Part shown: positions 1,686-62,789 of the stretch, piece by piece
How the letters are laid out: each line of letters starts with the position of its first letter
Position numbering within the stretch: position 1 is the stretch's first letter
DNA from: Whitmania pigra
Lineage: Eukaryota; Annelida; Clitellata; Hirudinida; Haemopidae
DNA: 64,000 nucleotides
Assembly: GCA_021613335.1 (NCBI GenBank)
Contig: JAJTWR010000465.1
Location: forward strand, 441,106 to 505,105
Direction: 5' to 3'
Made by a program: the position numbers and the translations under genes
Notes under the pieces: generated by a model
What the model was told of the DNA's origin: nothing
The model's input: only the letters and a program-made list of their open reading frames with translations
Database searches by the model: none

Positions 1686-1831
1686 AGCATCCCTTAATCA
1701 GAATATAACAACCATCGAAAATTTTTTTATCCAGTTTAACGAAATTTAGTTTGGTGGAAAATATCAAGAATAATTTTACTATAATATTCATTTATTTATT
1801 CACTGGATATTTTCACTTTGAATCATTGCAG

Positions 1832-24100: not shown

Positions 24101-25786
24101 GGCAGTTCAAGAAGGTCCGTAAAAGTTACATCTTCATTAGTTAATTAAAGTAGAATTTGCATAGTTTTAAAATAAATTTCACTATTTTTATCATTTTTGT
24201 GTAAAAAAAATTAAATGCTAACACTTTTGCCTACTCAAAGGTGGCTTGAAGCATTGGCACAAATCAGTTCCCGGAGAAGATTCTCATTCTTCCTACTTAA
24301 AACCTCAGAGTAATGACATTGAAATGACCTCATACGTGCTACAAATTTATGCTTCACAATTGAGTCTCAACGATGCTATTCCTATTGCAAAATGGCTCAT
24401 TTCCAAAAGAAATCCGGAAGGAGGATTTACTTCCACTCAGGTTATTACCATAAATTATCCTTACATTGATAATTATAAATAAAAATGCAATTATGTGAAG
24501 GATACCGTGCTCGGCTTAGAAGCTTTGGCAATGTTCGGGCACATGGTTTCACCATCGGCAAATGCTGATGGCCTCAATGTGCAAGTGACTCAAAACGCCA
24601 ATGAAAATGTGCATACATTTGCCAAGGTCAACAAAGAAACGGCCCTTCTGCTTCAATCTCACCAAGTTAGTCATTTGCGTGGCATCATGAGAAGAAATGC
24701 TTAATTTTGATGAATGTTTCACCATTAATTATTTTGGAATTTAATTTAATTTATTATTAATTAATGTATTATGGATTGTTAATTACATCATGAAAGTCAT
24801 GATGTCTTTAATTGTTTCACCAGCTTCCTTCGGACGCAAGCAGCGTATCCTTTTCGGCAACTGGAGAAGGAATGGCCTTGGTTCAAGTGAGAAATGCTTT
24901 CTATCATGTTCTAGTTATCTCACCGTATTCTTTTTGCAGTATTTGCTGACCAATCATGAATTCAATTTGATGCTTTGTTTCAGTTAAATGTTAGGTGCAA
25001 CGTGAAATCTGGGACTGAAAATACCTTCCTCCACCAAGATCTTCAAACAAATTCAAATGACACCAGAATAAATCTTCGCATTTGTGCACGGTAGCAACTG
25101 TTATTATCTTCAAACATATTGAGTATTTTGTATTTAATAGATTATATAAATTGTAGTTGGAATGGACCTGAAGAAACAGGAATGGTACTAACAGAAGTTA
25201 ATTTGTTGACCGGTTACACTCTCGCAGAAGATTATTCTGATGTTTTAAAAGAGCAAATTGGAAGCATTTTCAAAAAAGCAGAATTTAGCAACAATCGCCT
25301 TTCCATTTATCTCGATGAAGTTAGATTTTGTGAATATCGGATCAATCTCTAAAAATACTTGCAAATTGTAATTGCTGAAAATCAGTAGATATTTAAGAAT
25401 CATTAAAGAGAATGCTGCTTCAATTTCAAATTTATATCATTCTTTATTTATTTATTTTTTTCACAGCTGACTGAAACTTGTTTCAACGTGAATTTAAAAT
25501 CAATATTTTACGTCAAAAACGTAAAACCAGCGCTCGTTAAAACCTACAGATATTATGCAACAGGTTTGATTTTCTTATTCTTATTATTTTATAGGCATGC
25601 TATTCAACAGTCATTTAAAGTTTTTATTGAGTACTACGATTCAAACAAAGAAATTCGTAATAAATTAAAGGAGCATCAGCAAGTGGTTACTACTCACCAA
25701 CATCAACATCTACAAAAGTTGACGTTTGTGATTCCTTATTTAATCAACTAGATGATAATGGAAATCAAGTGGGGCCCTTCAAATGA
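14954..25786 (+). CDS. A2M: Alpha-2-macroglobulin-like thioester protein, copy 2 (complete, 36 exons)
   Basis: 1460 residues; human A2M has 1474 residues and also 36 exons. Exons: 14954-15012, 15399-15565, 16304-16329, 16385-16538, 16689-16759, 16826-16877, 16943-17016, 17097-17136, 17197-17299, 17460-17562, 18289-18528, 18626-18850, 18911-19033, 19369-19431, 19489-19695, 20174-20323, 20438-20557, 20845-20914, 21169-21316, 21636-21753, 21979-22092, 22237-22338, 22428-22556, 22755-22899, 23020-23196, 23331-23412, 23525-23687, 23809-23880, 23940-24114, 24241-24440, 24501-24665, 24824-24886, 24984-25090, 25157-25319, 25467-25563, 25671-25786; all phases agree. Features: signal peptide; [15 protein letters not shown] (MG1/MG2 signature); Ser-rich bait exon ending FPETWIWSD; thioester GCGEQ at 23076-23090 (Cys955); His1071 in KVLHTAM at the position of the C3 catalytic His; receptor-binding domain at the C-terminus. 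A protease cutting the bait would collapse the cage and activate the thioester. The His suggests ester-forming TEP-like chemistry. Confidence 0.93.
17755..17830. repeat. Dispersed repeat fragment in A2M intron 10
   Basis: Shares TTTCAACCAAAAAGA and GACCACTAACACAA with 62946-63000, next to a LINE relic there. It is probably the 3' flank of the same repeat family. Intron 10 (17563-18288) otherwise shows nothing. Confidence 0.4.
22790..23206 (+). repeat. Near-identical tract shared with copy 1 (thioester region)
   Basis: Counterpart of 6046-6466, covering most of exon 24, the 120-base intron and exon 25. Confidence 0.85.
24241..25319 (+). repeat. Near-identical tract shared with copy 1 (exons 30-34)
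   Basis: Counterpart of 7846-8920, introns included. Confidence 0.85.
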
Positions 25787-32399: not shown

Positions 32400-35300
32400 T
32401 CAGAGACCAGCCTTACTGAAAACCAGTTCAAATGATGGAGTAGGATGCCACCTCAAATTCTCAAAATAGTAAACAAAATTTCCTTCAAAGTATATTAGCA
32501 GCTGGCCAAGTTTGTAAATTTGTTGTTCATTCTGGCTGTTGTTCATCATGGGAAGAAGCGCTATTCCATTTTCATAGCAAATATGTTCAAGTCTTTCTTT
32601 TGTTGTCATGTGGTGAGTAGGTCTGTTGGGAAATGAAGAGACCTCTGCCTGACCATAGTATTGCGAACTCACCCTAGGTGGCTGTGGAATTCTTGTTCCG
32701 TGGTTCATGATCATAACAGCTTCACTGAGACATCCTGATAAAGTTTAAACTATGTCAATAAAAGAATAGGTGATAAAAGTAATTCATGACAACTTAAAAA
32801 TAATTCAATTTTTACTAATTAAGTAGAAGCAATGTAAAATGGCTAAATGACATTCCATGACCAAACTAGGATGTCAAAAATGACTATGACAAAAAACAAG
32901 TGGAAACAAATTATAAAAAGAAATCAATAAAATAAAATAAAACCAGTGTCCCACCATTACCATTAACAACATCAATACTTTGATTTGCCCACCTTTTATA
33001 GAAGGATCATTCTTTAACTTCTCAGGGAAAAGTGCCAGCCAAGAGGTGAACCAATGATTCATTTCTACCATGCTGTAGTTACCAGAGGAGGCCCATGAAG
33101 AAACAGTCCTTAGGAAAGTTGGAAAGAAATTCTCTTTCACAGCTTCAACCATGTGCTGGTGAGGTATGATGTCTATCCAATCCATAACCCATTTCCATGG
33201 TTCTAATTTTCAAAAATCATTCATATAGATTATAAGATATGAGACGTCATGTTCACATGTGAATTTAAATGCTGATTTAACTGTAAATGTCATAAAATAA
33301 CTAAAGTTGCTTACCACATGTCTGATCCTGGAGATTAAAGGAAATACTTTGTAGACAGGTGATCAACTTGGGGAGTATGTGCTTGACCACAAAGACATCC
33401 ATATGACCCTGGTCAAAGAGGCCTACCCAAGAGCTGATGATGACTCTGGCAGAGGCATCGTCTGGCTTCCAGCAGACCAGGGTCTTGCCAAGCTTCTGGC
33501 GGATCATAGAATATAGGGTCGACATCCTCTCCCCCATGATAAAAACCCAAGGTTGGATCCATGTCTGTATGGGTATGTGATCTTTATTAGGCTCCCACTT
33601 GTCCAAAGCAATCTGAAGTTTCATGTAAATGCACTGATCAAGGACATTAGTCAACATCCATTGGGGCATGACGGGATGCCAGTACTCGAGGAGATCCAAC
33701 ACGGGATGTGGTTGCTTCACGTTCCACTGGCTTCACATGCAATATAAACATATCAATAATTATTCCAATAATGCTACTAGATGGACCAAAAAGTGGCCAA
33801 AAAAATCATTAACCTTATGGCAGATCTAATCTTTGGCATTATGACCTCCCACAATAAGTTGTCAAAGGGTTCCATAAGTTGAGGCACACCATTCATGCTA
33901 CCAAAGTTTTGTTGGTATGACTGAGAAGATCCTGCCAGTACCTCTTTTATAAAGACCATAACTTCAGTACCTTGTTTTGGGTTTCGGAGGGGATCCCAGT
34001 CCCTGAACTCTTGCTTGACTGAGGGCGTGATTATATTTAAAAGCTCTAGAGAAAGATCATAGAGCAGATACTCATGTTCATAATTTGACTTGAGTTTCTT
34101 GAGTTGGTTTGAACAGCTTTCCATGGCCTCCACCAATGCGACATTAGTGCACACGATTCTGCACCTGCAAATTTCAGATGTAATCAGAACTTCTTTTGAA
34201 CTTAATAATACAAACAAATAAAAATTGAGGAAATGCATCATTTTAAGAAACTAAAAAAGAACTCACTCATCAAGAATGTTAACTACTTCTTCCAATCTTG
34301 AAATTTGAATTTTCTCTTCCTCACAGGCATCATTTGCCTTCCTCAACTCATACTCCAGATTAACCAGCGTGTCTTCCTCACTTGATAGTCTGCAAATTAC
34401 AAGTTCATGGCGATGCTTGATGTAGTGCACATTAATGTCATCAAAAGCATCAATGTCACAAAACTTGATTAAGTTAGCAATTAGTTACTAATCTAATTTC
34501 AATAATCTGCATCACAATATTGCAAATAAGTTTAATTTGAATTTGTTTTTCCTACTGACTTCCGATGATTTTTGATGAGGCGATCTTCAGTCATTTCAAT
34601 GATAAGTTCGAGATTGTTGAGAAGTTCAGGGAGATTAAACAACTTTGGCTGTGACGGCAATGCTGATGCTTCTTCATCCAATGGCCTGTTGTGCCTCTTG
34701 CTGATAGCTTGATATCCTGAAGAAGATAGCATAAGATATCAGCTTGCTTCTTTCAAATTCATACTCCTACATCCTTTGGCTAAGCTATGCTTTCCGTGAT
34801 GTATTGACATATCAAACGAGAAGCAAGTTGATGGAAAAGTGATAATAATTAATGAAATAAATGACATGCCTTAAAGGTAGGAAAGTGATTATTAGAGAAG
34901 CAACATTGTGACAGCACAATAAAATTAAGGTTTTGTGAGGTACCTGTTAGAACACGCTGTTCTTTTCCAGTCATGTCAATAACTTTCACCTTGGCAAGGT
35001 TAGAATCTAACTCAGAAAAAGAATGTTTGCTGGATTGTGCCCTTGATGCTTTCAATTTTATAAGCTCCTCTGCTGTTACATATTTCTTCCCTGATATTTT
35101 GTCTTTCTATAAATAAATTTATCTTTGAAATATTTGAAATGAATGCAATTGTTTAAAAATAAGATATTATTTAGATTAATAATCAATAATTATATTGTAA
35201 TACATTGATGCAACATAGTGTGACTTGTTTGAACTACATTTATGGTTAAAGGCAAAATGTTTTAAATTCCAACATATCAACTTCCAACTCCAAAGTTCCA

Positions 35301-38209
35301 ATTTCATAAATTAAATTGTAGTACAATAGCAAAAGAAGTGAAATTAAAGCAAAATTATTCAATTAAAAATCACCTCTCCCTTTTTCCATCTCCTAAGTTT
35401 GTGTTTGAATTCTCCCTCCTCCTCTTCTTGAGGTTCATCTTGAAACGGCTGAACCTTCTTCTCGGCCCCATAAATACCGATGGCTCCCCTGCCCTTCCTC
35501 TGGACCGCTTCAATTGGTGTGGCAATACCTTGGAGATTTTTACCCAGGCCCTTACCGGCCACGTGACCCATCTGTAAAAATGGAAGCGGTTACCAGTTTT
35601 TACTTATAACCAAATTAACTAAAAAATAATAATAAATTATCAAGGAACTATTAAACAACTTTTTGAGGATCTGAAAATAAATAGAAAAATGAAATAATAG
35701 ACATAATATTATTATCTTCACAAACCTTCTCTAGCAGTTTCTGACCGATGCCTTTGGTATGCCTTTCCCATGAGCCTACTTCATTACTGGAATGAAACAA
35801 AAGCCTTGGAAAATGTATATAAAACCCAGATTTTATTAATTGCACTGCATGTTTGATTGCTTTTAGTTCTACATTAAAAACACCTGCAAATTGCAAGTAA
35901 ATTTCAAGATATGTAAGAATTAAAATCTTAAAGACTTATTGTTTGCTCAAACATCTTAACATTTGTTAGCATCATTAAAATTGCATGCTCTCTAACATTG
36001 TATTTTTTTTGCATCGATTAATCAAAATTTGTGATATCCCATTTATAAAAAGTATGTTTGGTGCTTTTTAAAACATTTGACAATCCCCAATAAGCTGCAA
36101 ATGCATCTCCTGAGATAAAAATATGAAATAATTTGAAACAAATATCATCAAATACTTTTTTGCTATGGCAACAGGTTTCGAACCTGCATAACCTTTAGAG
36201 GATTTAACTGAACGTTTTTTTGTCTCTTCCGCAATTTCTTCCTCTTCATCAGAATCCTGCAAATCAAAATCAAATTGAGATGTCTGTGGGATTGGAGTAT
36301 GATGTATGGATGCTAGAATAAGTTGATATGCATGTAATTCGTTACTGTAATTAATTACGTTTTTTGGTAATTTTTACTTGTAACAATTACAAAAAAAAAT
36401 TTGTACTCTTACTTGTAACAAATTACTATTTTTGGTCATACTTTTAATTCGTTACCTTTTTGGCGCAAGACGTTACAAAGTAACATAAATAACATTTTAA
36501 ATTAGTTTATTTTATTTTAAAACTTTATTAAAATTCTAGATTGTTATTCTTTGGTTCATTCAAAAACCTTCTTTCCGATCATCGCTCATTTGTTATTGTG
36601 GTTATCGCCGGTCGTTTTTGTTAAATCGGAAATTGTTGATTAATCATACCGAAGCTTTTTTAATATATAATATTGTATGTATATAATAATATAAGATTTA
36701 ATATATCGTAGTATGGATTCATTTGAAGCCAGTTTGAGTGTCGTTAGCGAAGATAAGAGGAACAAGGGTGAAGATAGTCCGTGGCCGTATTTGAACAAAA
36801 TGTTCAGATTTCAATCAAAGGAAAATCATATAAGTATGCATGCCTACTCTGCCAACAGAAACAAAAACTACATGTTCAGCATATGAAGGTTCTTCATCTA
36901 ACTTGAAGAAGCACGTGGAACGCATGCATCCAACAGAAGTTAAGGAATATGGTATATCTGTTGCTAACGATTGTCAAGCTTGATGAGAAACTGGTAGCCA
37001 AAATAGCATCTTCTAATGCAGCAAAGATGGACGAGCTTTGAGCTCTCGTTCATATGATGCTGACAGTATTGAAGACAGTTTCTTCAATTGCACAAGGTCA
37101 ATTGATATTCTGATGCAGTATCTTCGAGACCGATCAGTTGACATGAACATTATTACTGGAAGCGATACCCTGAAGAAATTATTTATCCAGTTGAACACTC
37201 CTCTGCTAGCTAGTGCAGCTGTTGAACGTTTATTCAGCTCTTCTGGTATGACAAAGAACAGCTGAAGGACCATAATGAGTGACAAACTATTCGAGGACTT
37301 AGTTATGTTAAAAATTAACAAAAATTTGTGATTGTAATGTAATAAATAATAAAAACACCAAAAAAATGCATTAGTTCAAATGTTATTACTTTATGACTGT
37401 TAGTACTAGCAGTTAATACCAGTAATTGTTTTAACGATAAGAGAAACAATTTCTTTTAAATAATACGGAATGATGTATGATCACAATAATGGCGGCATCA
37501 AAGTTACTTGTAATTTTTACTTAAACTTTTAACTTTTACTTGAGTAAATTTTTGAGACAATACTCTTACTTAAGTAGCTTTTTGAGGTATTACTTTTACT
37601 TGTAACTAGTTACCGAAATGAGGTAATTTTTACAACACTGTTGATATGGATGACTGAGTCAACAGAAGACTTGACATTCTAATTCAAGCTGAACAAATAT
37701 TAAGACCTGTCAGAGTTTAATTTTGTGTAAAACAAAAAAGACCAAGTCAATTGCATTATTGCACATACCAAAGCTTATCTCTTTAATACATTATTCACTG
37801 ATTATTGGCAGTAACTTAAAATTTTGCCATAAATATTTCAATAGAAAAATTTGTTGGTTAAATCACGATATCATTGAATCAACGGATTGTCATCCAATAA
37901 ATGAACAAATGCAAAAAAGAAATAGCTAACTGGTGCTACATCATCTTCCTCTTCAGTTTTTGTGACCTTGTCCCCCACTTTGACTCCCCCACTCACAAAT
38001 GCCACAGGAGCCGTGTAGTCCCTGTTCTTTCTCTTCCCACCAGCAAATCCACTCCTCTCCCTTCCACCATCATCCTCATCTTCACTATCTGCCCATATTC
38101 CATATATTGTCTTGTTTTTGGACATCCTAAACTTTTTTCTGGTTGGATCATAGAGATCCTCTATGTCCTTCTCATTCATTTCAAATTTTTCATATTCTGG
38201 TGAAGACAT
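32400..38209 (-). CDS. TFIP11: Tuftelin-interacting protein 11 homologue (G-patch spliceosome disassembly factor)
   Basis: Partner and activator of the helicase DHX15/Prp43 in releasing the intron lariat spliceosome; nuclear. Eleven exons: 38209-37931, 36256-36156, 35786-35726, 35571-35374, 35106-34944, 34716-34560, 34389-34267, 34164-33814, 33730-33315, 33202-32993, 32734-32400. All phases agree, giving 797 residues (human 837). The N-terminus has [12 protein letters not shown] and [13 protein letters not shown] (TIP_N region). The G-patch follows: [20 protein letters not shown], then [24 protein letters not shown] comes next, then the GCFC domain with W-rich repeats ([23 protein letters not shown]). 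The start ATG lies just after a 5' UTR splice acceptor. The first coding intron (37930-36257) carries a hAT element. REC8 lies downstream on the same strand. Confidence 0.95.
36331..37640 (+). mobile_element. hAT element in TFIP11 intron 1, with 8-bp target duplication
   Basis: The element is flanked by TTGATATG at 36323-36330 and 37641-37648, the 8-bp duplication expected for hAT. The right terminus reads ...TACAACACTG, the hAT CAGTGTTG end inverted; the left terminus is decayed. The inner ends are mirror images rich in GTAAC/TACTTG. It is oriented + strand, opposite to TFIP11. Inside are a broken BED-finger region from ATG 36713 ([13 protein letters not shown]) and a C-terminal dimerisation piece (37038-37265) with [18 protein letters not shown], the hATC signature. 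The catalytic middle is deleted, so it is non-autonomous. Confidence 0.9.
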
Positions 38210-39352
38210 TCTGAAAGTAAACATTGAAAAGGTAATCCACTGGTTTCATCTCGAAAATTAATTATAATTCCACTGCCTGATAACCATAAGTTAACTTTCT
38301 AAATGCCATTTATTACATTAATTACTCAGATTGTTCAACTGCTTAGAAGCACATTTGGTGTGTATATCCGTTTAATTAAAGCCAATTAAGCAAACTTTTA
38401 GTATAAGTGCAAATCAACACTTGCAAATTGCAAGTAAATTTCCTAAACAAATTATTGCCTTTATACCTCAATTTTTAGAATAGAACTCCGATTTAGAAAA
38501 TAAACTAGAAAATCGCAACCAAAATACAATTTAAATTCGTCAATATGTACCTTTATACCAAAGTACTTGTCGTTAGATGACGGCTAGTATTTCAGTCAAA
38601 TTTTATAAGTGCAATGTGTACAGAATAAATCAAAAACAAACAAGACTTTTCCAAACTCCTCGTGAAAACATTAAAAGAAGCCACACAGCAACCTTTATAT
38701 TGACGCTATTTGTCACTTTTCTAAGAAAAACATTAACTTTTTAGCGTTTTACTAAATTTTAAATTAAATTAAAAAAGAATAAACTTTCATGCCAATGAAT
38801 GTTCATTAAACGTCGATACAATACAGCATAAGTACCTTTACAAAATGATTGCCTAAAAATATAATAATATATAATATAATATAAAATAAAAATTATTTCA
38901 GTTGTATATAATTTACTCACTGTGTCAAACATCTGAGGACCCTATAAAGTTCAGACTTAATTAGAAGGTAAGGTAGTAAGATTTGTGTATTTTAAAAATT
39001 TGAAAAGTAGCAAATTGAGCCGCTTAGCTTATACTTAACACCCAACGTTTGGAGATGCAACCATTTCCATATGGAGTTTGCGTGTATGGCTTGCATATGC
39101 TTAAAAACTTAAATATGTATATTGTTAGATATAATCAGCATTCTTACTTAAGTAATGCTAATTGAGAAATGTAACGTGTGGGCCCGAGGACAAATTCATC
39201 AGAATCATTGTCTCATTAACGATACGTCCTTGATATCATATTTAGCATTGATGTACGTCATATTTATTAATAGCTTGTACATTATTGTGTTATAAATTCA
39301 TTAACTTCAAAACAAATTTGATAAAACAACATAATGTCTCAATATAACAGGT

Positions 39353-47930: not shown

Positions 47931-47940
47931 TATATAAAGG
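47931..47940 (+). promoter_or_regulatory. TATA box of cysteine-rich peptide gene 1
   Basis: TATATAAAGG. A short 5' UTR exon follows (about 47961-48020) with donor GTGAGTATAA and acceptor CGCAG at 48107, the same layout as gene 3. Confidence 0.75.
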
Positions 47941-48144
47941 CCGTGATGCCGCTAACGTTTAAGTTAAGCGTCGTGTATTGGGCGAGTTTGTGTTGTTAAA
48001 AAGTTCAGGGCGTCGAACGAGTGAGTATAAAATTTGTTATTTTAAGAACAAATAAAGATTACTTGTTCGTAAACGAATACTTTCGAATATATTTTTGTCG
48101 AACGCAGATATTTTATCCAGTCACAACAATCTGAAAATTATAGC

Positions 48145-48991
48145 ATGTTCGCGTTAAAGAAAGACATGGCGATCCTTCTGCTCATCTCCCTAATTTCTGT
48201 CCTGACCATTGTACAGTCTTATCCCAGGTTAGGGTACTACGAATGCTGTTGTCCAGATAATCCTGCCTGCAAGGGTTGTTACAGTTGCATGAACGTCGTA
48301 TTCTCCTGCTATTGTGACATTTGTTCATGTTATCCCGATGACGAACCCCCAGGTTAGTTATAGAACCCTCTCTTTTTAAGACTATTGCATGATTTTGCCA
48401 TTGCACTTAATTTAGTTAACTAGCTTTTAACATTTGTTGAACAGTTGAATGGTTGTTTTATTAAAAAATGTGTTTATGTTGTGATGTTTGGATTGTTCTT
48501 GATTTCGGATGTATTGGTATGTGGTAATTTTGACAAAAAAATATTATAAAAATTAGGGTTGGAAATGTGACATTGCATCTTTTATATGGTTTTATGTTGA
48601 AATTATGACGCTATGTTTCTTACATGCTTTCAGCACTTTAATGAATTATATCTGAAATAATGCAACTCCAATTCAATTCTTTTTTTAATCCAATTTTTCA
48701 CTTTGAGACATTTTTATAATTTTGACAGAAGTTTATCAAATGTCACTTACATCATCACAAAGCCTTTCTTAATTAGTCTCTCTTTTGGGTCATTTAAATC
48801 TAATTAGCAATAAATCTTATTGTGTCCCCTGATTCTTTCAATAACGAGCGCATGAATTAGTTGTCGTTTGTGTTATTTATTCAAAAGTTTATTCTCCGAA
48901 TCATTGTTACTTACTACGAAATATTATTTATTTTTCAGAAGATCCAAATATTATCTTCAACAGATATGGAAAAAGACATTTTAGGCACTGA
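48145..48991 (+). CDS. Secreted ten-cysteine peptide with amidation tail, gene 1
   Basis: 86 residues from two coding exons (48145-48352 and 48939-48991; phase-1 intron) behind a spliced 5' UTR exon. A signal peptide of about 25 residues ends ...LTIVQS, then YPRLGYYECCC opens a ten-cysteine core with spacing CCC-x5-C-x2-C-x2-C-x6-C-x-C-x2-C-x-C, then the acidic YPDDE. The last exon adds EDPNIIFNRYGKRHFRH: Gly-Lys-Arg after Arg-Tyr is a standard prohormone-convertase site with Gly as amide donor, predicting a mature peptide of about 55 residues ending in Arg-Tyr-amide. I know no family with this cysteine pattern. A peptide hormone, or a secreted defence or venom-type peptide, are all possible; the role is unknown. 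Confidence 0.85.
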
Positions 48992-51900
48992 TCCGATTAA
49001 AGAACTGTTAATAATAATGACTCAGACTATAATATTGTTTCTTGTTGTTGATGCTCTTAGTCAAAAGTTAAAGTCATTGTTGAAATAAAAGTTTACTCTT
49101 AAAGAGGTTTTTCTCTTCAAAATAGCTCCTCTGTGAGATTTTCGAAATGATTGATTTTTTAGGGGTCGCCAGTGAATTGACAACTAAGATTTGAATCTCA
49201 GATATAGATCTCCAGAGAATCATTTAAGATGGAGTGATGGAGTGGGTGAATAATTTCCCGCGGATCGCATCCTGCCTTTCAACGTTTAATGTGGCCCATA
49301 GGCGCAGTCGGCTGATGCACTTTCCTGGGACGAATTTCTAAATTTATAATGCAAACAAAATGGTCAAGTAAAATATCGGATAAAATGAGATTTGACCGAT
49401 AATCATGACTTATCTTCTTTGATTGAACTGGTTAATTGGTATTTCAAGAAGATAACCAGAAAGTATGTCGTCGTTTTACTTAGGAAGACTTAGAACTTTT
49501 GTTTTTTTTTTATTTTATTTTTTATTAGCTAACATCAATTCAATGTGTTTGATACGTCCAGAAACTGTTAATACAACTTCAAAGACAATAAGGGCCTTTC
49601 GCAGACAAAATTATTTTTTGACCGATCGATTATTAACAGATCATTCTGAGCATCCTAAACCCATGAAATTCTATGAAGTAGTCTGATTGCTTGAGGGCAC
49701 TTAGAAGAGATTCACAGATTTCAGTTTTACTACATAAATTGTAATATAATAATAACGTTTAGTTTTAAAAATATTAATAGTATTAATTGTATCCCACCGA
49801 TTGGTTTAAATCTGTTTTTATTTGACCTATTTGAATAGAGACTTTGCGTCCAAATCATCTAGTTACGAAATGATCGTTAATAAAATATCAAGCAACCATC
49901 CAGAGACTGACAAAATATAATAGGTGAAATCTATTACAAACATCATTCGAGTCAATAAAGTTATTAGTCAAAGCATTGCAGTGGTCAAGTCCGTTACAAG
50001 CAATAGAAGCTGCTGCTAGTGAGTTAGGATGTCTTAAATGAACCGCATCAAGACCTATTACTGAAGCTTACACCTTTTGACAATCAAGGTTCTTTGGTGC
50101 TTAAAGATGAACCTTGACTTCGTTGAATTGGATCAATTATCAGTACTTCAAAGACGCAAAACTTATGAACATTTTTCCCATGGACAATAAAAGCTTATAA
50201 TGTCGTAATCAACATTCCAAAATAAGCATTTTCCAACAACAAGTTGACACTTGACTTTTCACACGATCCTATTCATTTTAGTGGCATGATAAATACTGAG
50301 ATAAATACTATCATGGTAATGCAAGCGAACTATTCCGTGTGAAAACATTATTCAAATCAGTTTTTTAGGCTATTAAAAATCTGAAGCGATGTCGAATTTT
50401 AAAGCTTCATGAGTATTCGGTGATTAAACTGAAAATAAAATATGAATTTAAAATATAAAATAACTAAACGAACGTAATGGGGTGAAATTATGGTATAATG
50501 TTGCGCGACGTTTCAAAGTTTTGTAGGATACTCTAATTCTACATTTAATTTGCATTCTAATGACCATTTCAAAATCTTAAAGCACAGTTTTGTTTTCCTA
50601 TATTATAATGCTTATATTATATTACAAACATTTGCATTTGTAATGAAGACAGCTGTTGATATTAAGATGTACTTTTTATGCACGCAAATCTTTGGTTATG
50701 AATACTATTACTTTTATATCAGTTTATTGATGATGATAATAATAATAATTAAATTACGTATAATATAATGATAATTTAACAATTATTACAACAATAATAA
50801 TAGTTATTGTTAATTTAATAATTCTAGTAATTTACAATTTTTTAATATAATAAAATAATAATAATTATTACTACTGCAACCTATCACTATTTATTCTGGT
50901 GAATACAGTGGCGTTCAAACAACAAAGTATTTTTAACCAAAGTTATTTAGACAATGTTTTTTCGACCATGTTTCTTCAATTATGAAATGTTTGTTAGCTG
51001 AGATTAAAAATTCATTAAGTGACGATAAATCTAAGACTTGGACAAATTGAGTCGAGCAGCTCATCATGCGTCATAAGGTTAAGAACTTCCTCATAACTTT
51101 CCATCAACTCCGTCGTCAAAAATATCTGATCTTGACATTTGTCACTGATTATTGCATCAAATGCTAATAAATTTAGCATCAATGTACCAAAATATTGTTG
51201 TTATTGCATTTACTGAAAAGATTTCCGATGCTAATTTTAATCTTGTTACATTCTGATAGCTCATATTTGACACAAATTTGATCGTCTAATGCCATTTTCT
51301 TCTGATGTTGAAGCGAATAAATCTAGTTCACAACAAAACAAAGATGCTTAAAAAGGTATTTTAGAATTTAACATCATGATTAGGTTATTTTTGCTCCTAC
51401 TCATGAATTCTCATTTCCTTCGAATGCTTTCTCGAAGAACCTTTGCAAGTTCATAGCAAACAGTTTTTCTATTTTTATGTGGATAGATAATTAACAGCCA
51501 TCATTATCACAAACATTGTTTATTTAATTAAACATTTCTATTTTTAAAATATAAAATGTTCGTCCTTGCGGCATTATATATGAAAAGAATGAGATTTCAG
51601 AAGACATAGAAATTTTGAAAGAATCAATTTAACGGTAAAATTGTAACTTTGAATTTCATAATAAAGCAAATAATTTTTTTATAGATTTTAATCTGTTATC
51701 CCGAAGCTGCATCGGATTATAATTAAATGATTATTTACAAAATACTTATTTGTCACCAAATTTCTCACAAACTTGAGATTTTAATAATTTCATATGCCTT
51801 TAAAAATTTCTTAGTAATTATTTTAGTTTTAGGGGCAGTTTTAATTGCAAGTTCATAATAACGAAATATAAAATTGTTATTTAAAACGACTCCGATTACA

Positions 51901-52102
51901 CCAATAATATTAACATTAGTAATTAATAATAATAACACGGTACCTCATATGAAATCTATATGTTATATGAAGGATCTATTCTCACTAGAACATTTAATAT
52001 CTCATAATTTCTTATCGACAAAAAATATTAGATTGGATTTAATTATAATTTGATAATATAACATGAAATTATAAATTATATTTCTTCACCATTAACTTTC
52101 AG
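48992..52102. other. Spacer between peptide genes 1 and 2
   Basis: AT-rich, without a recognised gene. A 73-codon frame at 49465-49686 begins with a signal-like hydrophobic stretch (FVFFLFYFLLANI) but has no supporting context. A minus-strand stretch near 51020-51130 (ELMESYEEVLNLMTHDELLD) looks like decayed coding sequence. The 5' UTR exon and promoter of gene 2 should lie here but were not located. Confidence 0.35.
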
Positions 52103-52129
52103 AGCATAGAAAAGATTGGTAGGGCCGAT

Positions 52130-52534
52130 ATGTTCGTATTACCAAATACTTTATTAATCATTTTGCTAGTCAGCATATCGCTGATAAAATTAGAAGCAGT
52201 AAAATATCCGAGGCTGGGGTATTACGAGTGTTGCTGCCCAACAAACCCAACGTGTCAAGAATGTTATGGCTGCATGAACGTTGTCTTCACCTGTTATTGT
52301 GATATTTGTTCCTGCTATCCAGATGATGAAGGTTTATGATTACAACACTATCTACTATTATTGCAAAATATTTAAATATAATTTACATGACTATTTACAT
52401 TACTTAAAATATCGCAAATTCAATTTTGAAAAATAAACAAATTAATAATTTTGTTTTATTAAATAAAGCTTGATGCTATTTATTAGCATGATAATATATT
52501 TGCTTAATTTTCAGATATGGTACCTAGGGATTAA
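52130..52534 (+). CDS. Secreted ten-cysteine peptide, gene 2 (no amidation tail)
   Basis: 73 residues from exons 52130-52331 and 52515-52534, after a splice acceptor at 52101-52102 in the 5' UTR. Signal peptide, then YPRLGYYECCC and the same ten-cysteine spacing as genes 1 and 3, with substitutions only between cysteines (CCCPTNPTCQECYGC). The intron position and phase match the other genes, but the last exon reads only DMVPRD before the stop, so the Arg-Tyr-Gly-Lys-Arg tail is missing. The peptide would end with a free acid after the YPDDE segment. This shows that the core can evolve independently of the tail. Confidence 0.8.
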
Positions 52535-53159
52535 AGATAAAAGAATTCCATTGAATCGTGTCGAAAATCTATTACATTTCCATCATTAAACTGATCGGAT
52601 TTAAATTTAAGATTTCAGATTTCAATCATTGCGACAACTGTATTCCTTGCTTATAATTTGCAATGAAGTTTATTTCATTTATCAACAAAAGAAATACGAA
52701 ATTAAAATCGAGACATCAAAAACTCTTTCCAAATTTCAAAGTTATTGTTTTGGCATCAACGATATTTGTAGGTGATTTGACAATTAAATAACAATTAAAT
52801 AGCAAAACAATAGACTCATGCATTTAATGGCATAATTTCATCATTACATTAATGATGCACTACTTAAATTTGACTTTTTCAAATGCACTTAAAATGACAA
52901 ACGTTCTAATGACCGGTGTTAAGAAAATGTTTTTATTCCCACATATAGTTCACAACACATAGTATATAATAAATATAATTTGTAATGAGATCTTTTAGCT
53001 GAAACTAACAATAATCACTAACTGCTGAGAAATAATAATTTAAAACATTTCAACAGTTTTGTTCCGATTAGAAAAAATATTTAAACCGCAAAAAAGCTGA
53101 AATAAAACTCAAGGTCAACCTTAAGGAAAGGCTTGCTTCCGCTACAAGGCTGACCCACA
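52535..53159. other. Spacer, nothing recognised
   Basis: AT-rich; no feature supported. Confidence 0.4.
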
Positions 53160-53520
53160 TACAGTGCTAGAAAAAATGTTAAGTTTTTTTCAACAGTTTA
53201 AGCTTAAAATATCGCAAAAGCTCAGCATTTCAGCTTTCCACTTGAATTAAGATAGTTGCAGGCTGTCTTCATATAGACATCCAAATCTAGCTTATCGTTT
53301 AGCTGCTTACATAATTTTTCTCCTCGTATAGCCTTCCTGATGAAACGTTTCTGAATCTGATTCGAGAGTTTTTTAGGTCTTCCGCCAATGTACTTATTTC
53401 CTTAGAAGAAAGGATTATCTAAAAAACATTTGACGACAGTTCTTGACCTATTAAACTCATTTTCAATCTTTCTCATCGAATAGTTTACTTTTCTGAAGCC
53501 CTTAAGTTATCCTCTTTCTC
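53160..53520 (-). mobile_element. Tc1/mariner-like fragment (terminus plus transposase N-terminus)
   Basis: The + strand terminus at 53160, TACAGTGCTAGAAAAAATG, matches the inverted terminus ending at 198. On the minus strand from about 53510 the sequence reads MRKIENEFNRSRTVVKCFLD, then after one stop KYIGGRPKKLSNQIQKRFIR: the paired-like helix-turn-helix DNA-binding domain of Tc1-type transposases (the GRPKKLS linker is typical). The catalytic DDE half is absent, so this is a dead, internally deleted copy. Confidence 0.8.
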
Positions 53521-54282
53521 CTCCTTTCCTGCTTTTCCTCGTGATGAAATGAATGTAAAAGGAAGTTTTGAAATTCACACATCTTTACATAGCTTTCTTA
53601 ATCACAATTTAATGTTTGATATTTCCAACAAAACCTTGAAATTGATGAAATGAGCCCAAACCGGAAGCTGTCTTAATAATATTTCCCTCAAACGGTCTCT
53701 GCCTGAATGGGGAGAACGTTCGGGATCGCGAACCGTGAAGGTCCCATCGTAAAAAAAGCACAAAATAAAAAATAGCGCTCCGTCCCAAGGTTAGCATGTA
53801 ATTTAAAATGGCCATTAAATTACTATTTTTAATTTAGCAACAGCCCGAATTCTATCTTGTTAAATAAAGAAAATTGGAAATGGAAGGTAATAGAATAAAT
53901 AAGGTCCATCAAAAGCAAGTCATTTTGTTCTAAATATCATGTAAGTTGTTTTAAATATTTATTTAATATTTAAATTATGAAAACATTAAATTTGACGAAA
54001 GCGATCAAAATTATTTTAATTTATAATTATTATTTAAGCATAAATTTAATAATATTAATTTGATAATATTAGAAATTTTGATTCTCAAGTTGACAAGGCC
54101 ACCGTTAGGTGAAATAAATCAAAACATCTGACATTAATGTTTTCCATTAATCCAGACAATACATCTCTTGAGTTGTTTTCTGTTGACATTATTCTTGGAG
54201 CGTTTAATTCTTATGGAGTGCATCAATTTCTTAATGATATTTCTACAATGCACGAATCTGCCTTGCATGACTGAAAATTGTG
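53521..54282. other. Spacer, nothing recognised
   Basis: May include the other end of the Tc1-like fragment; I could not place it. Confidence 0.35.
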
Positions 54283-54290
54283 TATAAATA
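54283..54290 (+). promoter_or_regulatory. TATA box of cysteine-rich peptide gene 3
   Basis: TATAAATA. The 5' UTR exon ends at 54335 (CTAAG, then GTCAGT) and splices to 54652, 17 bases before the ATG. Confidence 0.75.
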
Positions 54291-54668
54291 GGTGCGATTA
54301 TGCTGTCCAGTAGCCTTCGCCAACACAACTCTAAGGTCAGTACAGTATTTTACTTCATTCCAGCAAAAATATATTTAATAAATTCTGTGTAGGTATAGTT
54401 TTTCTATTTTTCTTTCTAAATTATGAATAAAGATAGCTGGTCACTAGAAGTTCAGATGACTGGGACAATCGAACATTATTGAGTCAGGAAACGCATCCTA
54501 TTAATAATAATAATATTATTAATAATCATAATTTATTTATAAAACGCCATGAGCATGGCGTTCTAAGAATAATCTCGCAATTCAATAAATTCGAAGCAAT
54601 CAGTTCATTAAAAAAATAAACTTAAATAAAATAATCCAATTTAATCTACAGGTTTTCAACGAAAAAAT

Positions 54669-55102
54669 ATGTTTGCATCTAAAAAGAGACTGACATTCAT
54701 TTTCTTGTTATCCATTTTTTTCGTGACCAATTTGGTGCAAACATATCCTCGATTCGGATATTACGAATGCTGTTGTCCAGACAATCCCGCTTGCAAGGGT
54801 TGCTACAGTTGCATGAATACAGTCTTCTCCTGTTACTGTGACATCTGCTCATGCTATCCTGATGATGAGCCGAAAGGTTAGCAATACAGTTTTTGTCATT
54901 TCATGCTGATAGTAATAGTAAAATCATATTCAGACATTTTATTCCACTTATCAGATGTTTTATTTTATCTACTTGTGAATATCGAGACAATGTCGCATTA
55001 CTTATCAAATGATTCGATCTAAAACTTATGATGCTTCCTTATTTTACAGAGGAAATCGATCCAAACATTCTCAACAGATATGGTAAAAGAATGAAGCATT
55101 AA
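54669..55102 (+). CDS. Secreted ten-cysteine peptide with amidation tail, gene 3
   Basis: 86 residues from exons 54669-54876 and 55050-55102, exactly the lengths of gene 1. The signal peptide ends ...NLVQT, followed by YPRFGYYECCC and the shared core. The last exon encodes EIDPNILNRYGKRMKH, again with Arg-Tyr-Gly-Lys-Arg, predicting an Arg-Tyr-amide C-terminus after convertase cleavage. In the core, codon differences from gene 1 are almost all at third positions (for example GAT/GAC, CCT/CCC, GCC/GCT), the mark of purifying selection on the protein. The untranslated first exon, intron phases and TATA box are shared with gene 1, so these are functional tandem duplicates. Confidence 0.85.
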
Positions 55103-56585
55103 AAGGAATTTCAAGCAAAAGACTTGGAAATTATGTTAATCTTAGTGAATTTTAAAAGCCAAACCTTTTTTTTCAAAGCTACATACTAAATAAATTGAGA
55201 TCAGTAAAATGCGTTTACTTTGTTAATTTTAATAATTTCACAACATAACTTTAACTCAACAGCATAAACTATCAATACAGGAACTGGATGCATCCGACGA
55301 TTTGCTCAACTAATTTGAAAAATGCAATTAAAGTAGTAGTAGCGAAGAAATACAAGCAGATGGCTAATAAATTTTATGTTATTAGAGGGAGCAAAAAATG
55401 TTGCAAACTGATTTTAATGAAACACATCTTCGTTCCAACAAAACTTGAAAAAAATACCAAATGTTCTAGTCACAAGGAATTCATTTGTGATGCTTAAATC
55501 ACAAAATCGATATGCAATAAATTTAGTTTGTAATATTTAAATTAGGTAATTTAAAAACTGTTTAAAATTTTTGAAATATAAATTAAAATGTAAATGTTCC
55601 AATTCAGCTGAGAATCAAATCGATTTCTTCTTTCCATCATTGTTGAGATTGGGATTGCAAATATTCACACTAACAGAAGTTGATGATGAATTGTATCCAG
55701 TTGCGAAAACACTTACAATAGTATGGGTGATATGTTAAAACTTCATTTGATAAAACAAATTCAACTGAATGTTTAAGTTTACATGAATTTCAGTTTGAAT
55801 ATCATACCAGAGGAGTAATATTGATAAGTCTTCACCAAAGCTGGCTTCACATTGTTTACATAGAATGCTGATTACATTTGTACTTTGAAGCACAGTACAT
55901 ATGAAATAACCTTTAAAACATTTAATTATTAATATTGGATTGAAATTTTGATTTAATAAAGCGTAGATTATTAGATTATGACAACTAGTCCATTCTATTT
56001 TCACGATGGTAAAAGTGACACATTGAAATAACGAATGACATTTAAGATGCAGATAGCAAAAAAAAAAAGAAATGCCAAAATTGAAAAAGGCTTGATGGCA
56101 TGGTCATCAAGCTTGGAGTATTGAGTAATAGATAAAGATAAGCCAAATCAGTAATCATAAAGTCGGTCTTACGTTTTTTTTACAATATCTGGTTATGTGG
56201 TAATGATGGTGGAAATCTGCTGAAAGGACGACGGAAGTCATAACAATTGTTACATGTCAGAGATCAATCGTTCCGCCAATATTACTTCTGAGCTACCTCT
56301 GGATTCGAATAGTAAAAATAAAATATTTTATGAAATACTCTCATTTACTTACATTCATCAAGAACGTTGGAGTCCGTTACGATAAACAAGCCAACACTCT
56401 AAATATGCACTTTATGTTGGCAATATAAAAACATTTGTATGTCTAACAAACACCCCTTGCATAAGCTCCCAACTGACCGGGGCCACGCCTATAAAAACAT
56501 GGAACCTTTTACGGGTTTACTGTAAATATTCATATTCATTGAGGTCATAAGTAACCGAATGTAAATTAACATGTTGTTCTTAAAA
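55103..56585. other. Spacer, nothing recognised
   Basis: AT-rich; short frames only. No cysteine-rich relic was found. Confidence 0.4.
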
Positions 56586-56910: not shown

Positions 56911-57500
56911 CAATTCTAGATATGTTTTACTTTGCAACAACAATATAGATACATACCCAAGCAGAAACGATTGAAAAGGAATTTGATTCAACCTTTTACT
57001 AATCAAAATTAATTAAATTAAATTTTATATAATCAATTTTATTAAATTATTAGTTAATATAAAAATTAACGATTTAGGGATTTTTATTCATTTTTTGGGC
57101 CAAGATTATTTGCTAGGCGGAGTTTATTTTAACCAATCAAAACGATGTTGGACAGGATGCAGACTCTTGATTCTGAGTATGTAGATTATTTAGTAGATGA
57201 CATGTAAAAATTCCAGAGTTTTGTTTATTTTACATAACAAAGGAGATAAATAACAGAATTACAAAAAAATTAACAAAAAAATAACAATGTTGCTGTTTAA
57301 ATTGCCCAAAAAAAAAATTAATTAAAAATTAATGAATTTATTAATTTTGAATATTAAACAATATTTGGAATCTTTTACTGTGCTCTTCTGATACAACAAA
57401 CAAATGAACAATGAAAGATCTTATTTAAGCTGCCAAATAACAGTCATAATAGCAATTCATTTCTTTAACATTTAAAAGAACTCACTTTTTACAAACTATA
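56911..57500. other. Upstream region of the HECT gene
   Basis: Very AT-rich. No clear TATA box at a fitting distance and no splice acceptor needed before the ATG. Confidence 0.35.
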
Positions 57501-60020
57501 ATGGATCTTTACACTAAGATTAAACAAATGGACGTAAATAAAAATGATCCTTTGTTAGAATTCGAAAACATTTTTGGGTGTGCATCGCTCAAAAAATGGC
57601 TGCAAAGTGGCTTCGGTGTTGTGCTGCATGCATGCTTATCAGAGCTTGTCAAAGGATGGAGTAAGTCAGAGATATTTAAGAAAAAGGTGGAATTGGTTAG
57701 TAATAATCCAATTCTTTCAACATATATGTCCATTCTCGATGCAGTTATTCCGCCTATGCAAAATATCTTCGACATCAAACTTGAGGAAAATTCTAAATCT
57801 TGTTACAAACATTGTGTTGACACAGACACAGTCGATAGGCTTATAAGCCAAATCATAAAGCCCTTATTCATTTTATTTTGTGAAAATCCTCACGATGTAG
57901 AAATTATGTCAAACGTCTTTCTCAAAGCCACTTTTCACGCCAGTGAAGCAACTATAAAAAATAATGGTGATGCATTTTTAAAGCTTTTTCCTTTCATATG
58001 TGAATTTTTGAAACCATTTTGCTTCGCTGGAAGCCACACCGTGATAAAATTTCTCGCCATATTAAACCACAAAATGAAAGGTCCATGGCTTCAAAGTATT
58101 TTGGAAACCAAAATTATTTTTTCTATAAGATACACTGTATTGAGAAATGGAGAGAACTTATGTCCTTATGTAAATTATCTGAAAAAACTTTATTTTGATT
58201 TGGATCTCGAAAAAGTGATTGTAGCGAGGGATCCATCGTGGAAACTAATGCTTAAAGCGCAGCCATTGGTTCCAAAAGAAAAAATGATGGGGATCATGAT
58301 ACTTTCAAGAAATTTATTCAACGTTAAGATAAAGCCTATACGGAAGTTTATTCAGAGTGGTCTTCTGCATAAATATCACTTTATCTTATGCAATAAATTT
58401 GAGATTGTTCACACAAAGTTTGTGATCAGGTGTTTTCTCGAGTGGTTTATATACTTTGAGAGGGGGATTGATAATAGTTATTCGTGGATCAGTACTCGCA
58501 TTGAGAATTTTGTTGAAGTTCTTAAAGATACTTTGGTACATAATGTTTATCTTTTGAGGGATTTATTCGGAAATAGTAAAAGAGAGCACGCAGATTCTCC
58601 TTTAAACACTGAACCCTTCGAAAAGGAAATTGCCATTACACTGGACCTATTACATGCTTTTTATATTTTGAACAGCAGCTGGTACCAATGGTTTGATATT
58701 GTACATGAACACGAATTAATTGAGTGGGATTTATTTGAATGTCACGGCTTCGAATGGTGTTTGGAAGAAGAGCTGAATCGTAAAAGCGGAAGATTGCCTT
58801 GGTTTGTCGACATGATAAAACTGTTTCCTGATATTATCAAAACGAGCCACAGGATAAATTTGTTCTATGATTCAATACGGGACGAAACAGTTCTAAATTT
58901 TGAAGTGTCAAGAACAAACGTGCTTCACGACATTTTTGAGATATTTCAAAAGAACAGTAAACATTTCTCTGCTTGTTGGAACTTAAGTTTCAAAGATGAA
59001 ATAGGGCAAGGAATTGGAGTAACGAGAGAGGTTTATTCTATTTTATCCCAAGAGTTGCAAAGAGATGACATCAATCTCTGGCGAGAGGAACCATTGTTAG
59101 AATCGGGAACGCCTAACGACCTTTTCCCGAAATTAAGCAAAGATATTCAAACATTTGAATTAATGGGTCAAATTATGGCAAAAGCCTTAATCGATGACTA
59201 CTATCTCGATATACCATTAAGTAACGAAATATTCGAACAGCTGAGACCTGTGCAGTATTCCCATTTAAGACGGGAACATTATGGCTTACAACAAACCTTT
59301 CCAGTGCTAGAATATCTTATCAAAAAACTTATTCCAGTCAAACAAAAAATAGAGTCCATCAAAAAAAAATTCTGTTATTTTGAGCATAGAGAAATAAGCA
59401 ATCTGACTTTCGATGATGGTAGTTCATTCGATGACCTGTGCCTTAATTTCACTGTTCCAGGGACAGATGTTGAACTGATGGAAGGGGGAAGTGAGATTAT
59501 ACTTTCTCCTCATAACATCGATTTATATTTGGAAAAGTTATGCGCTTACAAATTTCAAATGGAACCCAAAGATCAATTCGAAGCTATCAGACGAGGGTTT
59601 GACCAAGTTTTGCCTCTTGAAAGAATTGAATTATTTTTACCATACGAATTAAAATCGTTCATTTGTTGTCATAAATTCAAAAGATGGACCATGGACGAAT
59701 TAGTGAAATACTGCGTCTACGAAGATTCACAATCAATTCAATTTCTATTCGAATGCCTTGCCTCGTTTGATATCGAACATCAACAAATGTTCCTTAAGTT
59801 TACTACCGGAATGACGGGATTGCCATGTGCAGGTTTGGATGGCTTGAAACCCCGACTGACCATCTCAAGAGTAGATCTCGATAATCCTGACTCTTACTTG
59901 CCGAGAGCAGCGACTTGTTTTAGAACTTTATATTTGCCAGATTACAGCAGTTTGAACGTAACCAGCCAAAAACTAATGTATGCCATTTGTTATGGGAACG
60001 ACTCATTTCAATTTGTCTGA
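57501..60020 (+). CDS. Intronless HECT E3 ubiquitin ligase, TRIP12/UFD4 type
   Basis: 839 residues in one exon. The HECT domain covers about residues 470-839: FEVSRTNVLHDIFEIF starts the N-lobe and FKDEIGQGIGVTREVY follows; the C-lobe carries KFTTGMTGLP and LKPRLTISRVD, then YLPRAATCFRTLYLPDYSS. The catalytic Cys is residue 806 (59916-59918), 33 residues from the end, and the C-terminus FQFV resembles the hydrophobic HECT ending. The phrases TCx..L.LPDYSS and LxPRLTI fit the TRIP12/UFD4 subgroup, which acts on N-degron and ubiquitin-fusion substrates. Residues 1-460 are helical without a domain I recognise. TRIP12 is about 2000 residues with many introns, so this looks like a shortened, diverged retrocopy, yet the frame is intact over 2.5 kb, so it is under selection. 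Confidence 0.85.
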   Translation: MDLYTKIKQMDVNKNDPLLEFENIFGCASLKKWLQSGFGVVLHACLSELVKGWSKSEIFKKKVELVSNNPILSTYMSILDAVIPPMQNIFDIKLEENSKSCYKHCVDTDTVDRLISQIIKPLFILFCENPHDVEIMSNVFLKATFHASEATIKNNGDAFLKLFPFICEFLKPFCFAGSHTVIKFLAILNHKMKGPWLQSILETKIIFSIRYTVLRNGENLCPYVNYLKKLYFDLDLEKVIVARDPSWKLMLKAQPLVPKEKMMGIMILSRNLFNVKIKPIRKFIQSGLLHKYHFILCNKFEIVHTKFVIRCFLEWFIYFERGIDNSYSWISTRIENFVEVLKDTLVHNVYLLRDLFGNSKREHADSPLNTEPFEKEIAITLDLLHAFYILNSSWYQWFDIVHEHELIEWDLFECHGFEWCLEEELNRKSGRLPWFVDMIKLFPDIIKTSHRINLFYDSIRDETVLNFEVSRTNVLHDIFEIFQKNSKHFSACWNLSFKDEIGQGIGVTREVYSILSQELQRDDINLWREEPLLESGTPNDLFPKLSKDIQTFELMGQIMAKALIDDYYLDIPLSNEIFEQLRPVQYSHLRREHYGLQQTFPVLEYLIKKLIPVKQKIESIKKKFCYFEHREISNLTFDDGSSFDDLCLNFTVPGTDVELMEGGSEIILSPHNIDLYLEKLCAYKFQMEPKDQFEAIRRGFDQVLPLERIELFLPYELKSFICCHKFKRWTMDELVKYCVYEDSQSIQFLFECLASFDIEHQQMFLKFTTGMTGLPCAGLDGLKPRLTISRVDLDNPDSYLPRAATCFRTLYLPDYSSLNVTSQKLMYAICYGNDSFQFV

Positions 60021-61700: not shown

Positions 61701-62359
61701 CCTGCAAGCGGCGGTGATAACAAAAGTAATGTGTCGTGTTCTCAACCCAGCATACACCTTCTCGGATAGAGTACTACATAAATGGTTGAACGATTAAAAA
61801 GTGTCTTCATATTCTATCCGGATACATAAGGCACTCAAAAGATCGGGTAAATACAATAATATTTCCATATTTAGTAAGAGTGGCATTCAGATACGGACTA
61901 GGTGTAAGTATGGATGTAACGCCAGAGATTCAGGCACGTTTGCTAAAGAGTTGCTTGCTAAAAATAATTATTAAATTTAATCATTGACAGCTCCTACGGG
62001 TTTAATATGTTTGTGCTTAGAATTTACCGTTTGTGCTCAAACTTAAAACGATGAAAAAGTGTAGCTCGAGAGCTAATCTGCAAATTTTCTTCACGAAAAC
62101 ATGCGTAAAAAGTCTCGTAAACAACTTAAATTAATGTTTATTTTGGATTTTTCGAGAAGAGATTATAACAGAATAATATCTATAGGATAAAAGTTTACAA
62201 TTGGGTAACTACGTATAATTTTAGTGCAAAATGATATTTCAAAATTTTATTTAGCTTCGTCGCAAAATCAATGTTTATTCTTAAACGTCATATTTAAATT
62301 AAAAACAATAAAAACATAAACATGCATCCGATTAATAAAAATGAAAAATTTGTGTTATT

Positions 62360-62789
62360 ATGAAATTGAATTTAACATGCAACATCATACTAATAACGTG
62401 TTTTGTTACTTCGGATTCCATTGCCTGTTTCAAATGCAAGCATGCGACAAGTTTTCGCGAGAATGATGAAATCCCCGAAACATGCGATGGCAAAAGTTGC
62501 GTTAAAATAGAAGGACATTTGCTCAGTAAGCCTTTAAATGAGATTTATTTGGGTAAAGAGTTCTACATAAAATTTATTGATAAAATTTCTAGATAAAAAT
62601 GTTGAAGTTAAATTCTGCAGTTTTTATGAAATATCCCAAGAGTCTTGCCAGAAAGGTTTAAGATTTGGAATATCGGGAATAATTTGTAAATGTAAAAAAG
62701 ACCACTGCAACCAATCAACTCTTGTGCGGAATTCTGAAATGACAATTTATTTTGCACTGCTATTTAGCCTTTTAAATGTGTATTTGTAG
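62360..62789 (+). CDS. Ly6/uPAR-like three-finger protein, probably GPI-anchored
   Basis: 129 residues from exons 62360-62552 and 62593-62789, joined across a 40-base GT-AG intron that restores a single frame. The signal peptide runs to about residue 22 (...VTSDSIA). The ten cysteines read CFKC, ETCDGKSC, KFCSF, ESC, then CKCKKDHCN, the last being the CxC...DxCN ending of Ly6 three-finger domains, with Asn after the final Cys. A hydrophobic C-terminus (MTIYFALLFSLLNVYL) without a basic tail fits a GPI-attachment signal. Such proteins sit on the cell surface and often modulate channels or receptors; the target here is unknown. It is also possible that the intron is a small deletion artefact, but phase and splice sites fit well. 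Confidence 0.75.

What the first reader, a model, noticed from the sequence alone, without database searches (positions are those of the whole stretch)
47931..55102. Tandem family of secreted ten-cysteine peptides with a predicted Arg-Tyr-amide C-terminus
Three + strand genes in 7 kb share a signal peptide, a nearly invariant core (CCC-x5-C-x2-C-x2-C-x6-C-x-C-x2-C-x-C, then YPDDE), a phase-1 intron right after the core and a spliced 5' UTR exon. In genes 1 and 3 the separate last exon carries NRYGKR, a textbook convertase/amidation site. Differences between genes 1 and 3 in the core are nearly all silent. I know of no described family combining this cysteine pattern with an amidated tail. A new class of disulfide-rich amidated peptide hormones or effectors is possible.
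Basis: partly seen in the sequence, partly recalled or inferred. Interest (0 to 1): 0.85.

Follow-up and report, generated by a model that had tools for sequence, protein, structure and literature searches.

The report
Three-gene family of ten-cysteine secreted peptides
A small animal genome, probably a leech's, carries three neighbouring genes for a tightly conserved ten-cysteine secreted peptide that matched no family in the libraries searched; two copies end in what looks like a standard hormone-processing tail, and the third has lost it.

Summary
Three + strand genes (CDS 48145-48991, 52130-52534, 54669-55102) encode a signal peptide and a 42-residue core with the stated ten-cysteine pattern. 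The core is under strong purifying selection: genes 1 and 3 differ at 23 bases but only 2 amino acids. Genes 1 and 3 join in phase 1 to a tail exon ending NRY-GKR. Gene 2's tail exon looks like a decayed remnant: CAGATATGGTA, which spells part of gene 3's N-R-Y-G, now serves as splice acceptor, so the amidation site is gone. Two protein queries found only these copies in the 178 Mb genome. No credible match in Pfam, NCBIfam, PDB or a 5.8-billion-protein set that seems thin in animals.

The genome looks spiralian, most likely leech. It encodes an amidating enzyme and a convertase. Features tested for agatoxin-like/CCWamide, luqin/RYamide, NKY, NPY, macin and antistasin families are not met.

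Best reading: a lineage-restricted disulfide-rich peptide signal whose core is the main ligand and whose amidated tail is dispensable. Amidation, disulfides, tissue and receptor are inferred; a salivary or defence role is not excluded. Disulfide-rich amidated peptides are a known kind; this would be a new family of it.

The parts
47931..47938 (+). TATA box of gene 1
   Evidence: Read by eye
48021..48120 (+). Predicted 5' UTR intron of gene 1 (GTGAGT ... CCAG)
   Evidence: Read by eye; no transcript
48145..48352 (+). Gene 1 coding exon 1: signal peptide and ten-cysteine core
48939..48991 (+). Gene 1 tail exon, ...DPNIIFNRYGKRHFRH*, predicted amidation site
49084..49089 (+). AATAAA signal behind gene 1
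52130..52331 (+). Gene 2 coding exon 1: signal peptide and ten-cysteine core
52515..52534 (+). Gene 2 last exon, DMVPRD*; probable frame-shifted remnant of the NRYG tail exon; acceptor lies in the 11-mer CAGATATGGTA at 52512
54283..54290 (+). TATA box of gene 3
   Evidence: Read by eye
54336..54651 (+). Predicted 5' UTR intron of gene 3 (GTCAGT ... ACAG)
   Evidence: Read by eye; no transcript
54669..54876 (+). Gene 3 coding exon 1: signal peptide and ten-cysteine core
55050..55102 (+). Gene 3 tail exon, ...DPNILNRYGKRMKH*, predicted amidation site
55189..55194 (+). AATAAA signal behind gene 3

Best explanation
A lineage-restricted family of secreted, disulfide-rich peptide signals of a spiralian worm, most likely a leech. 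The signal peptide is cut before Tyr26. The ten cysteines pair in the secretory pathway. In genes 1 and 3 a convertase cuts after GKR, the basic residues are trimmed, and the PHM/PAL enzyme turns the exposed Gly into an amide. The products are 54- and 55-residue acidic peptides ending FNRY-amide and LNRY-amide; there is no dibasic site between core and tail, so the tail stays attached. The core is the conserved, target-binding part; the amidated tail adds stability or a second contact and is dispensable, since gene 2 lost it and kept the core. Shown: gene structure in DNA, selection on the core, conservation of the tail site in two copies, its loss in the third, presence of the enzymes. Inferred: signal cleavage, convertase cleavage, amidation, disulfides, a signalling role.
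For: Core conserved at saturated silent sites. NRYGKR tail conserved in genes 1 and 3 while introns do not align. Remnant of it in gene 2, so the site is ancestral. A frame with two PHM units and NHL repeats, and a convertase gene, in the same genome. Acidic, pI 4.05 to 4.16, unlike typical cationic antimicrobial peptides (general knowledge). Related themes in worm and mollusc neuropeptide papers.
Against: No transcript, peptide or expression data. No relative in any library, so no functional transfer. GTT donors in 3 of 3 genes are unusual and gene 2's GTTTAT is weak, so splicing may be partial (my reading). Structure models were poor (mean pLDDT 57.7 and 57.8). High conservation of a core does not by itself mean a hormone.
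Confidence: 0.5

Rival explanations
1. A secreted effector rather than a signal: a salivary (prey- or host-directed) or antimicrobial/defence peptide of the animal, with the amidated tail adding stability.
For: The genome is rich in secreted cysteine-rich families: 58 antistasin-domain matches and 5 macin matches. Small tandem gene clusters are common for effectors. An oyster paper leaves an antimicrobial role open for its cysteine-rich CCCGS peptides.
Against: Core is nearly frozen instead of diversifying. Only three copies found. No macin or antistasin model match and no similarity to an antistasin domain beyond shuffled controls. Acidic, not cationic.
Confidence: 0.28
2. The genes are mostly translated unspliced: products end right after the core as -EPPG, -EGL and -EPKG, and the tail exon is used rarely or not at all.
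For: Donor is GTT in 3 of 3 genes; stop codon directly behind the donor. Gene 2 has lost the tail without losing the core.
Against: The tail exon is conserved between genes 1 and 3 while the introns are not, and each acceptor opens in frame to NRYGKR.
Confidence: 0.12
3. A secreted metal-binding protein of metallothionein type; cysteines bind metal instead of pairing.
For: 10 Cys in a 42-residue core with CCC, CxC and CxxC motifs.
Against: Signal peptide and oxidising secretory pathway; aromatic-rich core; no Pfam match at E 10; the amidation site has no role in this reading.
Confidence: 0.05

Closest known systems
Agatoxin-like peptides / CCWamides (protostomes)
   Same: Short precursor, cysteine-rich peptide, predicted amidated aromatic C-terminus (PMC8557429 section 9).
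   Different: Eight Cys, a spacer peptide and basic site before the Cys peptide, Cys peptide in the last exon, intron between second and third base of a basic codon. Here ten Cys, core directly behind the signal peptide, phase-1 intron behind the core.
Oyster FYFY, CCCGS and GSWN precursors
   Same: FYFY: a ten-Cys long peptide plus a C-terminal peptide that one of two oyster paralogues lacks; CCCGS: 8 Cys in 42 residues; [quoted passage not shown]
   Different: FYFY's end peptide is a separate peptide named for FYFY, not NRY-amide; sequences could not be compared.
Annelid prokineticin precursor
   Same: Joins amidated short peptides and a Cys-rich domain in one precursor (PMC3890597 passage).
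   Different: Amidated LFVa peptides come first and the prokineticin/colipase domain follows; here the order is reversed and no Pfam model matches.
Luqin/RYamide peptides
   Same: C-terminal RY-amide; worm LURY-1 peptides AVLPRY-NH2 and PALLSRY-NH2 also have a bulky residue three before the Arg-Tyr's Tyr (PMC5576490 passage).
   Different: Short free peptides with a two-Cys motif later in the precursor; annelid luqins end WRPQGRF-NH2 (PMC7041311 passage).
NKY peptides (lophotrochozoan)
   Same: Long peptides, up to 43 residues, described as sharing an RY/F-amide motif (PMC8557429 passage).
   Different: NKY consensus core motifs are absent; no ten-Cys core is described in the passages seen.

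Membership tests
Agatoxin-like peptide / CCWamide | Eight conserved cysteines in the mature peptide | tested here: not met
   Ten in 3 of 3; definition
Agatoxin-like peptide / CCWamide | Spacer peptide and basic site between signal peptide and Cys peptide; Cys peptide in last exon | tested here: not met
   Core follows the signal peptide in the same exon
Agatoxin-like peptide / CCWamide | Intron between second and third base of the basic codon before the peptide | tested here: not met
   Phase-1 intron behind the core
Agatoxin-like peptide / CCWamide | Amidated aromatic C-terminal residue | tested here: inconclusive
   NRY-GKR predicted in 2 of 3; amidation itself not tested
Luqin / RYamide | Precursor's C-terminal part with two Cys, usually ten residues apart, behind a short amidated peptide | tested here: not met
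   No Cys behind the RY site in either precursor; definition
NKY | Central motif FW[RQ]P[LM]G[YG] or G[YF]WIWMPAQG | tested here: not met
   Absent from all three; definition
NPY/NPF | Match to Pfam PF00159 | tested here: not met
   No Pfam match at E 10; the genome's 3 PF00159 matches lie on other contigs
Macin | Match to Pfam PF14865 | tested here: not met
   No match; the genome's 5 macin matches lie on C344 and C211
Antistasin-type inhibitor | Match to Pfam PF02822 | tested here: not met
   No match; none of 58 genome matches lies on C377; alignment to one domain no better than shuffles (774 to 1110 of 2000 shuffles score as high)
CLCCY (lophotrochozoan) | Literal CLCCY string | tested here: not met
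   Absent from all three; family name
CLCCY (lophotrochozoan) | Conserved cysteine spacing of those precursors | not testable with these tools
   Sequences are in files that could not be read
Oyster FYFY / CCCGS / GSWN | Sequence and cysteine spacing | not testable with these tools
   Text only; sequences in figures and supplements

The most novel reading that the evidence does not exclude
A new hormone family built as a two-part ligand: a frozen five-disulfide core carrying a tethered RY-amide tail that could also engage an RF/RY-amide-type receptor, with a natural tail-less paralogue (gene 2) that separates the two functions within one gene cluster.
Probability: 0.2. Interest if true: 0.7.

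Novelty: new variant of a known kind. Interest (0 to 1): 0.42.

Why it matters
If expressed in neurons or endocrine cells, it would add an unrecognised disulfide-rich amidated peptide family to a worm group that includes a classical neurobiology model (leeches; recalled). The cluster offers a built-in test of what an amidated tail contributes to a disulfide core, because one paralogue has lost it. It also shows how a small peptide family can be overlooked when its processing site sits in a separate 17-codon exon.

Tried and rejected
Arthropod or nematode origin: judged unlikely. No arthropod cuticle domain (PF00379) and no nematode cuticle collagen (PF01484) was found, but the named control genomes did not ring either, so those negatives are not validated. 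Neurophysin exons with upstream exons spelling CFIRNCPLG and CYIRNCPRG and the antistasin and macin sets point to a spiralian, most likely a leech. That the first nonapeptide is a leech peptide is recalled; a paper search for it found nothing.

Structure: AlphaFold2 on three sequences gave mean pLDDT 57.7 with and 57.8 without the signal peptide; Foldseek of the second against PDB gave 0 matches. No fold is claimed.

Homologues elsewhere: none among 5.8 billion proteins by single sequence (no candidate) or by alignment (18 candidates, none at E 10); none confirmed in viral contigs (49 pattern matches) or prokaryote genomes (31 pattern matches). The protein set seems thin in animals: a HECT query brought 13 hits, one of them named and that one fungal. 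PDB by sequence gave one chance match at E 1.8 and none with the profile. NCBIfam gave only a chance match to a DNA polymerase subunit (2 of 3 members, best E 0.17). None of six core strings occurs in the open-access papers. NRY-amide strings brought 5 papers (listing; one opened in passages).

Antistasin kinship through the shared closing C-x2-C-x-C: rejected. NPY kinship through the RY-amide: rejected. The FMRFamide model found nothing, but it is 11 positions long and says little.
Full report
What is there. Three genes lie in tandem on the + strand of the window, which is bases 441106-505105 of contig C377 in a 178,173,256-base genome of 381 contigs. Spliced products are 86, 73 and 86 residues. 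Each starts with a hydrophobic stretch that reads as a signal peptide (no predictor was run), and conservation begins at Tyr26 in all three. The 42-residue core has the pattern CCC-x5-C-x2-C-x2-C-x6-C-x-C-x2-C-x-C and ends YPDDE; 34 of its 42 positions are invariant. In open segments of 20 or more residues, no other place in the six frames of the window has 7 or more Cys in 32 residues. Protein queries with gene 3 and gene 2 find only these three loci in the genome; the tool scores only its best candidates, so very distant copies could be missed.

More than chance. In the core, genes 1 and 3 differ at 23 of 126 bases, 20 of them third positions, with 2 amino-acid changes. Placing 23 changes at random gave at least 10 non-synonymous codons in all 2000 trials. 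NG86 could not compute dS for the core (saturated), so the duplications are old, while dN is 0.03 to 0.12. The signal peptides changed far more (dN 0.50 to 1.07). Selection therefore acts on the mature core.

The tail. Genes 1 and 3 have a phase-1 intron behind the core and a last exon giving EDPNIIFNRYGKRHFRH and EEIDPNILNRYGKRMKH. blastn finds no similarity between their introns, yet the tail aligns (36 columns at 83%, E 1.6e-5). Gene 2 ends DMVPRD. Its last exon begins inside CAGATATGGTA, which in gene 3 spells the end of N, then R-Y-G; this 11-mer occurs at these two places in the window and nowhere else on either strand, and MAFFT aligns them there. blastn between the gene 2 and gene 3 regions does not report the tail, so the case rests on the 11-mer and its position. 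The simplest history is that gene 2 lost the front of the exon, the CAG inside the Asn-Arg codons became the acceptor, and the frame shifted. The amidation site would then be ancestral in the cluster and lost once. Gene 2's core stayed under selection, so the core has a function without the tail.

Alternative ends. The donors read G|GTTAGT, G|GTTTAT and G|GTTAGC. In genes 1 and 3 the unspliced reading is Gly-stop, so a retained intron would give a peptide ending -EPPG or -EPKG. T at the third intron base is unusual in animals (general knowledge), so partial splicing is possible. This can only be settled with transcripts.

Whose genome. No arthropod cuticle domain and no nematode cuticle collagen was found, though the control genomes could not validate those searches. 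Two neurophysin exons have upstream exons spelling CFIRNCPLGGKKR and CYIRNCPRGGKKR. Antistasin domains give 58 matches and macins 5, four of them on one contig. The Hirudo medicinalis assembly covers 78.67% of an estimated 230 Mb (PMC7303139, passage), a similar size. A leech is most likely. This is inference; the mitochondrial and rRNA requests did not complete.

Processing machinery. One frame of at least 968 residues holds two PHM units (both copper-monooxygenase domains, two stretches each) and NHL repeats (E 2.6e-11). Another locus matches part of the PHM N-terminal domain. A convertase gene with P-domain and subtilase matches is present. So the predicted steps are available to the animal; that they act on these precursors is inferred.

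Comparison. Pfam, NCBIfam (one chance match), PDB by sequence (one chance match at E 1.8, none), PDB with a poor model, 5.8 billion proteins, viral contigs and prokaryote genomes gave no relative. The agatoxin-like/CCWamide family is the nearest in kind but fails on cysteine number, precursor order and intron position. Luqin/RYamide fails on precursor layout, NKY on motifs, macin and antistasin on models. Oyster FYFY shows the same theme, ten Cys and a C-terminal peptide lacking in one paralogue, but its letters were out of reach.

What I saw of each paper: PMC8557429 section 9 in full and passages; PMC8398477 section 24 in full and passages; passages only of PMC6425005, PMC3890597, PMC7041311, PMC5576490, PMC5996578, PMC4770511 and PMC4888303; abstract and passages of PMC7303139 and PMC7191736. 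Others in the listings were not opened.

Verdict. A real, selected, so far unmatched family; the amidation site is credible and probably ancestral but not essential. I hold a peptide signal at 0.5, a salivary or defence effector at 0.28, a mainly unspliced product at 0.12 and a metal binder at 0.05. It is a new family within the known kind of disulfide-rich, partly amidated secreted peptides.

Noticed in passing
window 1709-8978 and 18280-25352, + strand: Two tandem copies of a thioester-protein (alpha-2-macroglobulin type) gene. The frames at 6233-6460 and 22977-23204 translate identically, and the second matches the Pfam TED domain.
   Followed up: partly
window 57453-60020, + strand: Single-exon HECT ubiquitin ligase frame of 855 residues. 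Of 13 relatives found, 7 list the same longest contig length, 5546610, which suggests an intronless HECT family in another animal genome.
   Followed up: partly
window about 32400-38245, - strand: Broken-up coding exons with a GCFC match; by recall a TFIP11-type splicing factor.
   Followed up: no
window 62345-62789, + strand: Two frames that look like a signal peptide and cysteine-rich Ly6-type protein with a hydrophobic end; no Ly6 Pfam match when scanned apart, so this is recall only.
   Followed up: no
L008 1-2904, - strand (own genome C329): One frame carries two PHM units in tandem plus NHL repeats, an unusual-looking amidating enzyme without introns in at least 968 residues.
   Followed up: partly
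L017 and L018 (own genome C381, 2470779-2479586): Two vasotocin-type genes within 9 kb, with nonapeptides CFIRNCPLG and CYIRNCPRG in exons upstream of neurophysin.
   Followed up: partly
own genome C344 232603-249408: Four macin matches in a 17 kb cluster, a fifth on C211.
   Followed up: no
window 188-1338, - strand: Gag-like frames with zinc-knuckle matches below the curated cut-off: probably a retroelement; described only.
   Followed up: no
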